Part shown: in pieces, positions 50,501-53,500 of the stretch | How positions within the stretch are numbered: the first letter of the stretch is position 1 | How the letters are laid out: each line of letters opens with the position of its first letter | NCBI GenBank assembly: GCA_921293015.1 | Contig: OV121081.1 | Coordinates: 31,561,158 to 31,625,157, forward strand | Direction: 5' to 3' | From: Phorcus lineatus | Taxonomy: Eukaryota > Mollusca > Gastropoda > Trochida > Trochidae | Length of the DNA stretch: 64,000 bases | Notes under the pieces: generated by a model | Told to the model about the DNA's origin: nothing | The model's database searches: none | The model's input: only the letters and a program-made list of their open reading frames with translations | Position numbers and translations under genes: made by a program

Positions 50501-53500
50501 TGGGTAAGGCATGGGGCCGCAGCTGTGAACCTTGCCCCATCAAAAACACAGGTGATTTGAAATTTTAATGTTATTTTCTCTTTCAGAGGCATATTTAAAG
50601 CTTGTATGATCTTATAGGATGTTCAACATTTTATTGCACAAATGCATTTCCATGGAAATGCTTGCAGTGATATTTATTATTCATGTATAATTTTTCGTGT
50701 ATAAAGTTAAGTAAATGTGTACGTATTGTAATGGCCACCTGCCATTGTCCATTTGAAAATAGTATAAGGGATATTCAGTGTAAATGTTTCTTTGATTGAA
50801 TTAATATTATTAATATCATTACATCATCATTGCTAAAAGAGTAATCCTCATTCCTGACAAAGTTTCTATTATTGTTAGTTGTCATTATGTAAATATCATT
50901 GTTGTTCTATTTTTATCAAGATTCACATGGCTAATTTACATAAAGCCGGTTAATTTGAGCCCTCGTGAATAATGACGAGTACAAGGTAAAGTCAAAAGAA
51001 TGATCATAATCATAATTATTCTTAATCAGAAGTTTCACTTATCTGTAGTTTCATCTTTGGTGCATATAAGACGTCGTAAAATAATGTGATTAATCAGTAT
51101 TCTCTGTCATGCCGCTCGCCTGAATTTACCGGCAGCCGCCATTTTAACTTTGACAGTGACAGGGTCAATGTTGTATTTCCTCTTCCAGATTCATGAAGAG
51201 AATATTAAGTAAATGTAAATCTTTCCTAGTTGCCAAAGAAGTGTTATTATTGTAATCGAAACATTATGTATCGCTGAAATGTCGTATTTTTATAAGTTTT
51301 CGAACTATGTTAATACATATTCATACGCTAGGGCAAATGTCTTGCTGTCTGTTGATATTTGCTAATTCTAGCGGAGCATCAAAACCTAGATTAATGCTCC
51401 TTGTAAATAATAATTGTTTTTACTAATGCTCCGCATATTGTTAGTGGAGCAAAGCTTGCTCCGCAGTAATTATTCTGTAATCGGCAATATTCTAGGGAAG
51501 CAAACAACAATCTTCCGCTCCATGACAATTCCCATATCAATTTTGTTTTCGTATGTTTCTCAATGAGTTCAGGTTGCACTAATGTTCTGTAAAGTGCACC
51601 ATTTAGGAAAGTTTACTGTGCATCTAAACTTTAGCGGAGCAAATTTCTCTTGTACAGTAATAATGCACATATTTACCATTTTCTGGAAAAGTAGCCCGTG
51701 TCTCATGCCTGGCAAAGTTGTAACGAGTACTCGTGATTGGTCAAAGTGACGTCACGTGACCCTAATGACAGCTATATAAGCAGCGACGGAACTGAGTTTA
51801 GTGACTTGCACTTGGTGCTCTGAGGTGTACACATCATATAGCAATTGAAATATTAGAACCACTACCCTATTAATTGTAAGTTCATATAAAAACCAGAGGC
51901 ATTTATTGTAGTGAAATCAAACGTTAAGACTAACTGAAAGTATTTAATATTATTTCATCTATATAATAGAGAAATAAGTATAAAACAAATATCTCTTCCT
52001 TTGCCGCTTTTAGGTCAAAACTTACTTAGCCAGGCATGAACTATTCAAGCTTTTAGAGATTACATTGTTTAGTGTTGTTGTTGTTGATCTGGTGATATAT
52101 TTATTCAAGGACAGTCATGTTCAAGTTTTCTCAGTTACCAAAGACAATGTGTTGTCTTGTTGATAATAAATAAAATCATATTATTTGGTAATTAGCTTGT
52201 TTGTAGTTCTTGGTCAGGTGGCTTACAGCATCAATAATGAAATGTTTCATTTTTGCACTGTTCATAAACCTTCTTTCTTCAACTTTCAGGCATTGTCAGC
52301 AAACATTTACTATGCTTAAATGGTTTTAAGTCGAGAAATAAATTTGTGAAAGTTAAAGTTGGAACATTTACATAACATTCTTATTCAATATACAGGACTG
52401 GCTTTAAACATTTTTGCTATTTTTGCATGTCACTCTTAGTTAACAATTCTAAAAGTTTAGTTACTTTGGGGTTGTTCTCAGGTATCAATTGTGTTTTATG
52501 CCTTCAGTGGGGTGGTTGCACTTTGTGGAATTTCACCTCCACATTATTCTGTAGGAAACTTGTGGGCCATTTGTGGGTGCGGAACTCCAACCACACTTTG
52601 GTCTTCTTTATTCGTCAGTGCGATTCAGTGTGCATAACTATGTAAGAAGCATAGGGCGAGTAGGTATAAAAGGCAGTACCTGGCTCACGAGAAATTTTTA
52701 ATGTATTTTTAATGTATTTCATACATTAAAAACCTCCTTTGATGAGATGTATTTCATACATTAAAAATGTATGAAATACATTAAAAATTTCTCGTGAGCC
52801 AGGTACTGCCTTTTATACCTACTGGGGGAGCAAGTCTTGATCACTTCTATTTAACCTTGAGAACCCCTAATGCCAAACTTAATGAAAACATTTTGTATGC
52901 ATTTCACTGTTTGTTGTTCTTTGGTTAAAATCTAAATGTGCATATGTAGTGCTAATTTTTTAGGGTTTCTTTTGTACATATTCGCATGTATGAACCAAAC
53001 ATTACAACATATCTGTTACTGACTTTAGATATTTGATCATACACAGCATACAATATGCTACATATCATAGGTACCTTTTTTTAGTTCAAGTGGCCTGAAA
53101 TGGCCTGAGCTGCTGAAAGCATGGTATTACATCTAGCGTCTGTCAATTCATAAATTTTCACTATTTTTCTTCTTCTCGAGAAACATTGATTTAGGAAAAC
53201 AGAAATCTCATGTAAAAGGGCCACAGGGCCACTCCTTAGAATAACTACTTTCATCTTCTCATAAGCAAGAGGCCTAGAATGCTGAAAGCCTGTGTACCGA
53301 CTCCTCAGCTGATGGGGATTCTCACTGATTTGTTGACCCTGTAAACTCTGACAAGGGCAACCTTAAAAGCCTAAATACATTCACAACTTAAAATGTTTTT
53401 TTGGTGCCCTTTTTGGTAAGGAAAATGCCTAGAAAGCTAAACTTTTGTGTACAGACTCTTAATCTGATGAGGATAAATCGATTTGGCCATACCGTGGCAG

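What the first reader, a model, noticed from the sequence alone, without database searches (positions are those of the whole stretch)
51371..51875. Candidate internal promoter within the intron that splits TB3
Four exact GCGGAGCA octamers and several near matches lead into inverted CCAAT, CRE overlapping an E-box, and TATATAAG within 60 bp, then a possible 73-nt exon without ATG ending in GTAAGT. This ordered set is unlikely by chance in DNA this AT-rich. It could drive a 3' fibrillin isoform, a non-coding RNA, or belong to a small transposon bounded by a 16-bp inverted repeat (51703 and 52039). Splicing to exon 15 would first expose out-of-frame ATGs, so a coding product is doubtful.
Basis: partly seen in the sequence, partly recalled or inferred. 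Interest (0 to 1): 0.7.

Follow-up and report, generated by a model that had tools for sequence, protein, structure and literature searches.

The report
Solo retrotransposon LTR in fibrillin intron
The promoter-like stretch inside this fibrillin gene is one end repeat left behind by a virus-like jumping element with dozens of near-identical copies in the genome, so its promoter parts belong to the element and nothing yet shows that the gene uses them.

Summary
The finding lies inside a complete solo LTR (window 50727-52227, 1,501 bp, sense to the fibrillin gene) of a Ty3/gypsy-type family, with flanks gtat/gcat (4-bp target duplication, one mismatch). Full copies elsewhere have a tRNA-Leu primer site, gag, PR-RT-RH-IN and a polypurine tract. 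The genome holds 55 matches to the LTR 3' end. Octamers, CCAAT, CRE/E-box, TATA and GTAAGT are intact in 37-41 of 41 clean copies; the 16-bp inverted repeat is internal and bounds nothing.

A module, GATTGG-N10-11-TCACGTGA-N13-14-TATAWAAG, recurs in LTRs of other families: 101 genome hits (control 0), 96 of the 100 listed in four families. Octamers and CRE are family-specific. The ATG-less exon ending in GTAAGT is best read as the element's spliced leader: an acceptor lies directly before ORF3, a zinc-finger-like gene about 500 nt past pol (inferred, no RNA seen). The window copy shows no special constraint; co-option by fibrillin is possible but unsupported.

Side result: 8 of 27 family A insertions carry GG, and 2 of 7 family B insertions GA, in the left target duplication, matching each family's usual polypurine-tract end: a likely footprint of integrase end-processing.

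The parts
50727..52227 (+). solo LTR, 1,501 bp, family A of a Ty3/gypsy-type element
   Evidence: BLAST of 23 other loci stops at these two points; ends TGTAATGGCC...GGTGGCTTACA shared; no primer site or polypurine tract next to it
50723..50726 (+). left copy of target-site duplication, gtat
   Evidence: 17 of 27 family A insertions have an exact 4-bp duplication, central TA
52228..52231 (+). right copy of target-site duplication, gcat (one mismatch)
51371..51378 (+). U3 octamer GCGGAGCA, copy 1
   Evidence: intact in 38 of 41 clean LTRs
51427..51434 (-). U3 octamer, copy 2
   Evidence: intact in 40 of 41
51457..51464 (-). U3 octamer, copy 3
   Evidence: intact in 40 of 41
51634..51641 (+). 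U3 octamer, copy 4
   Evidence: intact in 39 of 41
51735..51740 (+). GATTGG, inverted CCAAT box; first part of the cross-family module
   Evidence: ATTGG intact in 39 of 41; also in families B, C and D
51747..51754 (+). CRE-like TGACGTCA, family A only
   Evidence: 41 of 41; absent from the family B LTRs L094, L095, L098, L101 and the family C LTR
51752..51759 (+). TCACGTGA E-box; second part of the module
   Evidence: CACGTG intact in 40 of 41; in families B, C and D
51773..51780 (+). TATA box TATATAAG; third part of the module
   Evidence: intact in 37 of 41; in families B and D, TATAAAAG in C
51800..51875 (+). inferred first exon (start of R), 76 nt, no ATG
   Evidence: TATA spacing and an initiator-like TTAGT/TCAGT match with family B; no ATG; start not measured
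51876..51881 (+). inferred splice donor GTAAGT
   Evidence: 40 of 41 clean family A LTRs; TTGTAAGTT at the matching place in family B
52165..52174 (+). overlapping poly(A) signals AATAAATAAA (inferred end of R shortly after)
   Evidence: 37 of 41
50405..50551 (+). fibrillin exon with most of a TB domain (start inferred)
   Evidence: PF00683 match at window 50446-50571, translation and donor
54607..54666 (+). next fibrillin exon, completes the TB domain (end inferred)
   Evidence: [20 protein letters not shown] in frame after TTTTACAG

Best explanation
The window holds a solo LTR of a Ty3/gypsy-type retrotransposon, inserted in sense orientation in a fibrillin intron and reduced to one LTR by recombination between its two LTRs. 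Shown by sequence: the LTR limits, the dispersed copies, the full elements elsewhere, the conserved motifs. Inferred: the CCAAT / E-box / TATA module is the pol II promoter of the element, transcription starts near 51800, and the 76-nt ATG-less stretch ending at GTAAGT is the 5' leader exon that in full elements is spliced to an acceptor directly before ORF3, a third gene with zinc-finger-like motifs. At the fibrillin locus the LTR most likely does little; at most it could give weak ectopic starts or premature polyadenylation.
For: 40 scored matches of 94-100% identity over the whole query, 12 same-strand pairs 8.88-8.96 kb apart. 55 exact LTR 3' ends genome-wide (control 1); 28 LTR/primer-site and 17 polypurine-tract/LTR junctions. 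Primer site 18 of 18 complementary to two tRNA-Leu genes with CCA. gag zinc knuckle and, in one frame, protease, RT, RNase H, integrase in gypsy order; best solved-structure match Ty3, E 3e-118. Motifs intact in 37-41 of 41 LTRs. Between families A and B the best BLAST block of the LTR is window 51669-51827 (E 2.5e-16 with L095; other blocks 3e-8 and 4e-7). Module 101 hits, control 0. Acceptor ...CTTATCTTATAG|AAAG-ATG before ORF3 in A and ...CTGTTCTAG|GAAG-ATG in B; the ORF3 start is about 500 nt past the pol stop with stops in all frames between.
Against: The target duplication has one mismatch. Within family A the core promoter is not more conserved than the rest of the LTR (0.0324 against 0.0328; 54% of sliding windows as low). 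No RNA data: start site, promoter activity and splicing are not shown. Run-length conservation of the donor between A and B alone is modest. Family C lacks GT(A/G)AGT downstream of its TATA; a GTAAAT there was seen only by eye.
Confidence: 0.94

Rival explanations
1. The solo LTR has been co-opted as an alternative or cryptic promoter of the fibrillin gene, or of a non-coding RNA in its intron.
For: All promoter parts are intact in this copy and it is in sense orientation; solo LTRs of other elements can be active, e.g. three solo LTR5_Hs among twelve loci with MITF and/or active marks (PMC7696977, passages).
Against: 2 of 12 window-derived substitutions fall in the finding against 4.0 expected (P 0.18), and sister copy L011 4 of 16 (P 0.33): no sign of special constraint. 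A junction to the next exon opens with out-of-frame ATGs. No RNA evidence.
Confidence: 0.05
2. The LTR acts on fibrillin mainly as a sense-strand poly(A) site or splice trap that truncates some transcripts.
For: AATAAATAAA at 52165-52174 in the sense direction, intact in 37 of 41 copies.
Against: No acceptor was tested for within the LTR; the insertion is tolerated in the assembled genome; no RNA evidence.
Confidence: 0.08
3. A small transposon bounded by the 16-bp inverted repeat (51703 / 52039).
For: The inverted repeat is real.
Against: Full-length copies run far past both arms to 50727 and 52227; no copy begins or ends at the arms.
Confidence: 0.005
4. A host promoter or enhancer that arose in place from local sequence.
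For: The motif set is unlikely by chance.
Against: The same 1.5-kb unit is dispersed over many contigs with target duplications.
Confidence: 0.005

Closest known systems
Ty3/gypsy (Metaviridae) LTR retrotransposons
   Same: TG...CA LTRs, tRNA primer site, polypurine tract, gag zinc knuckle, PR-RT-RH-IN order, 4-bp target duplication
   Different: LTRs of about 1.4-1.5 kb and a third gene after pol with zinc-finger-like motifs; family name and clade not determined (no tree, no repeat library)
Cer1 of C. elegans with its CERV gene (PMC10309623, passages seen)
   Same: a Ty3/gypsy element (label recalled) with a gene at the env position that does not resemble Env and is made from a spliced mRNA (517 aa there, 510-516 aa here)
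   Different: CERV mRNA has five exons, three of them in the gag frame; here a single ATG-less LTR leader is inferred, and splicing is not shown; no homology tested between the proteins
Retroviruses with the splice donor in the R region (HTLV/BLV, foamy viruses; recalled)
   Same: donor shortly after the start site, inside the LTR
   Different: no envelope-like gene found by Pfam here; donor use not shown
HERV-K LTR5_Hs (PMC7696977, passages seen)
   Same: LTR with a CA(C/T)GTG E-box; MITF binding shown there
   Different: no factor binding tested here; unrelated LTR by placement

Membership tests
Ty3/gypsy LTR retrotransposon family (solo LTR of it) | paired LTRs flanking an internal region in full copies | tested here: met
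   12 same-strand pairs; LTR pairs L009/L010 99.87% and L024/L025 99.16% identical
Ty3/gypsy LTR retrotransposon family (solo LTR of it) | TG...CA ends and short target-site duplication | tested here: met
   ends met in the window; duplication gtat/gcat with one mismatch; 17 of 27 family A insertions exact, 8 of 27 GG type, L020 none
Ty3/gypsy LTR retrotransposon family (solo LTR of it) | primer binding site for a host tRNA and polypurine tract in full copies | tested here: met
   28 and 17 junctions; 18 of 18 match to tRNA-Leu AAG and TAG
Ty3/gypsy LTR retrotransposon family (solo LTR of it) | pol order PR-RT-RH-IN | tested here: met
   one copy, L009; protease matches are below the Pfam curated cut-off
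Ty3/gypsy LTR retrotransposon family (solo LTR of it) | RT placed in the Ty3/gypsy branch by a tree | not tested
   only best solved-structure match Ty3
Solo LTR | no internal region next to the LTR | tested here: met
   no PPT left, no PBS right of the window LTR
Retroviral-type R-region splice donor feeding an env-position gene | donor in R, acceptor before the 3' gene | tested here: inconclusive
   both signals present and placed alike in families A and B; use of them needs RNA
Endogenous retrovirus (env-bearing) | envelope gene | tested here: not met
   ORF3 has no envelope match in Pfam and no PDB match; weak C2H2 matches in the family B protein only, below cut-off
Co-opted host promoter | transcription start or open chromatin at this copy | not testable with these tools
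   no expression data
Co-opted host promoter | excess conservation of this copy | tested here: not met
   2 of 12 substitutions in the finding, expected 4.0, P 0.18

The most novel reading that the evidence does not exclude
The LTR belongs to a clade of Ty3/gypsy elements that carry a third, zinc-finger-type gene expressed from a spliced mRNA with an LTR leader, and each family's U3 carries its own repeated GC-rich word (GCGGAGCA four times in A, CTTGGGGCA-type three times in B) that its own ORF3 protein binds, a Tax- or Tat-like feedback loop. The solo LTR would then make the fibrillin intron respond to that protein.
Probability: 0.08. Interest if true: 0.65.

Novelty: new member of a known kind. 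Interest (0 to 1): 0.38.

Why it matters
It settles what looked like a gene-internal promoter: it is a retrotransposon LTR, to be masked before promoter calls. It also shows which parts of that promoter persist across related LTR families (CCAAT, TCACGTGA, TATA) and which do not (CRE, octamers), and it points to a spliced third gene in these elements. The dinucleotides left in target duplications offer a sequence-only way to read integrase end-processing and gap repair at Ty3/gypsy insertions.

Tried and rejected
Small transposon bounded by the 16-bp inverted repeat: rejected, copies run past both arms. Host promoter born in place: rejected by dispersed copies. Selective constraint on the core promoter within family A: tested, not found. 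In one search the alignment held copies with long inserts (L072-L074, L016) and the divergent L077; they were misaligned, so one search was run again on 41 of 46 without them. Five rows were dropped (lengths over 1,600 bp: L016, L072, L073, L074; and L077). L013, L023, L075, L076 and L078-L085 were left out of both alignments as truncated or partial. tRNA search with a 17-base pattern gave 189 matches; the four loci fetched held no tRNA gene and were primer sites of other elements; a longer pattern (181 matches) gave loci with tRNA-Leu genes. U3 word test: GCGGAGCA stands out among GC-rich words (0 of 200 shuffles) but less among all 8-mers (18 of 200); family B words 1 of 200 among GC-rich words but 127 of 200 among all 8-mers; family C has none, so the feedback idea is weak. 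Of eight loci fetched for family B, L100 did not match the others. Four of the 100 listed module sites are in none of the four families; three of these were looked at: none shows a GTRAG donor downstream, and L115 looks like the start of some gene; not followed. Paper searches (listings only, apart from passages of PMC10309623 and PMC7696977) did not show this family or the dinucleotide footprint; a term search of PMC6238403 gave no occurrence. These searches cover one open-licence library, so they do not show that it is unpublished.

Full report
What was checked first. Four of the five GCGGAGCA matches of the 64-kb window lie in 51371-51641; shuffles gave a mean of 0.38 for the whole window and none of 100 reached five.

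What it is. A search of the window's own genome (958 Mb, 74 contigs, organism not named) with 51371-52060 gave 40 scored matches of 91 candidates, the window itself among them, each covering the whole query at 94-100% identity. Twelve same-strand pairs lie 8.88-8.96 kb apart, the spacing of two LTRs. BLAST of the region against fetched copies stops at window 50727 and 52227. The ends are TGTAATGGCC and GGTGGCTTACA. 55 places match the last 19 bases of the LTR, all without mismatch (control pattern 1); 28 places carry the junction to the primer site and 17 the junction from the polypurine tract. Of the 55 ends, 19 have a primer site on the right, 14 a polypurine tract on the left, 15 have an LTR start and neither, and 7 have no start found and no primer site. 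The window copy has neither, so it is a solo LTR. Its flanks gtat and gcat are a 4-bp duplication with one mismatch; the usual target has TA in the middle, which suggests that the right copy changed.

The full element. One copy (C2:63118475-63128958, 10,484 bp, LTRs 1,534 bp and 99.87% identical) has a gag frame with a zinc knuckle and a 1,290-aa frame with protease (below the curated cut-off), RT, RNase H and integrase in the gypsy order; the best solved-structure match is Ty3. The primer site is complementary over 18 of 18 bases to the 3' ends, CCA included, of tRNA-Leu genes with anticodons AAG and TAG.

The motifs belong to the family. In 41 clean full-length LTRs (46 less five with inserts or high divergence) the octamers are intact in 38, 40, 40 and 39, ATTGG in 39, the CRE in 41, the E-box in 40, TATATAAG in 37, GTAAGT in 40 and AATAAATAAA in 37. 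Within the family the core promoter is no more conserved than the rest of the LTR (0.0324 against 0.0328), and the window copy has 2 of its 12 derived substitutions in the finding against 4.0 expected (P 0.18): nothing there speaks for co-option. The nearest copy is L011 at 98.05%.

Deeper comparison. ORF3 relatives at 54-55% protein identity led to a second family, B, with LTRs of mostly 1,416 bp (seven of eight fetched loci). LTRs A and B align by BLAST in three blocks, the best being window 51669-51827 (E 2.5e-16 with L095). It holds GATTGG, TCACGTGA, TATATAAGCAGCGAC and an initiator-like word; TTGTAAGTT matches further on. The octamers and the CRE are not in B. A third family, C, with ORF3 at 28% identity and no significant LTR match to A or B (best E 0.007 and 0.017), has GATTGG-N10-TCACGTGA-N14-TATAAAAG. 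The pattern GATTGGN{8,13}TCACGTGN{12,17}TATAWAA then gave 101 places in the genome and 0 with the reversed control. Of the 100 listed, 43 are A, 24 B, 10 C, 19 a fourth type D and 4 other. That D is an LTR is inferred from paired places with ORF3 relatives between them; its LTR ends were not mapped. In the two D copies read, a GTAAGG or GTAAGA follows the TATA.

The exon. In family A the ORF3 start lies about 500 nt after the pol stop, with stops in all three frames between, and directly after ...CTTATCTTATAG|AAAG; in B after ...CTGTTCTAG|GAAG. The 76 nt from the inferred start at 51800 to the donor hold no ATG. It is inferred; no RNA was seen. ORF3 is open over 510 aa in L102 and 516 aa in L103. 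Its cysteine/histidine pattern looks like C2H2 fingers by eye; Pfam gives zf-C2H2 for the B protein at E 0.00023, below the cut-off, and none for A; no PDB match. Several copies have no stop in the matched part.

The gene. Nine TB-domain matches in the genome all lie at C1:31.54-31.64 Mb on the + strand, so the window is part of one fibrillin-like gene. The intron runs from 50552 to 54606 and splits a TB domain. The LTR is in sense orientation.

A footprint of integration. Of 12 full family A elements, six have an exact 4-bp duplication; in six the left copy ends in gg where the right has at or ac, while the first two bases agree. Of 15 solo LTRs, 11 are exact, two are of the gg type (L017, L058), the window has one mismatch and L020 shows no duplication. 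The bases before the 3' LTR, at the end of the polypurine tract, are gg in 15 of 17 family A junctions and ga in two. In family B that end is ga in both copies read, and 2 of 7 insertions have ga in the left duplication (atga against atat), five are exact. The simplest reading is that two bases left unpaired after integrase trims the U3 end are sometimes ligated instead of removed, and one of the two strands then wins. This was noticed in passing and rests on 34 insertions.

Noticed in passing
family A and B insertions, e.g. L010/L009, L026/L027, L096/L118, L097/L119: In 8 of 27 family A and 2 of 7 family B insertions the last two bases of the left target duplication are replaced by the dinucleotide that ends the family's polypurine tract (gg in A, ga in B); likely a trace of integrase end-processing and imperfect gap repair.
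   Followed up: partly
L102:223-1755 (-), L103:876-2426 (+), L111:732-2279: Third gene (510-516 aa) after pol with zinc-finger-like motifs in three element families, directly after a splice-acceptor-like site in A and B.
   Followed up: partly
genome-wide, e.g. window 51735-51780: Module GATTGG-N-TCACGTG-N-TATAWAA gives 101 places against 0 in the control; 96 of the 100 listed are in four LTR types, 4 are not.
   Followed up: partly
52659-52823: Imperfect palindrome of about 165 bp in the same intron, a separate dispersed repeat: 84 matches reported, the window's own two among them.
   Followed up: no
G000:C15:38416170-38463043: Long array of tRNA-Leu(TAG) and tRNA-Ile(GAT) genes repeated every 486 bp; the tRNA calls cover only the first part.
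   Followed up: no
L075, L078, L082, L083: LTR copies that match the window LTR only from about 51828 on, so with a different or lost U3.
   Followed up: no
46901-47844, 42766-43214, 11636-12163: Several tandem arrays in other parts of the window.
   Followed up: no
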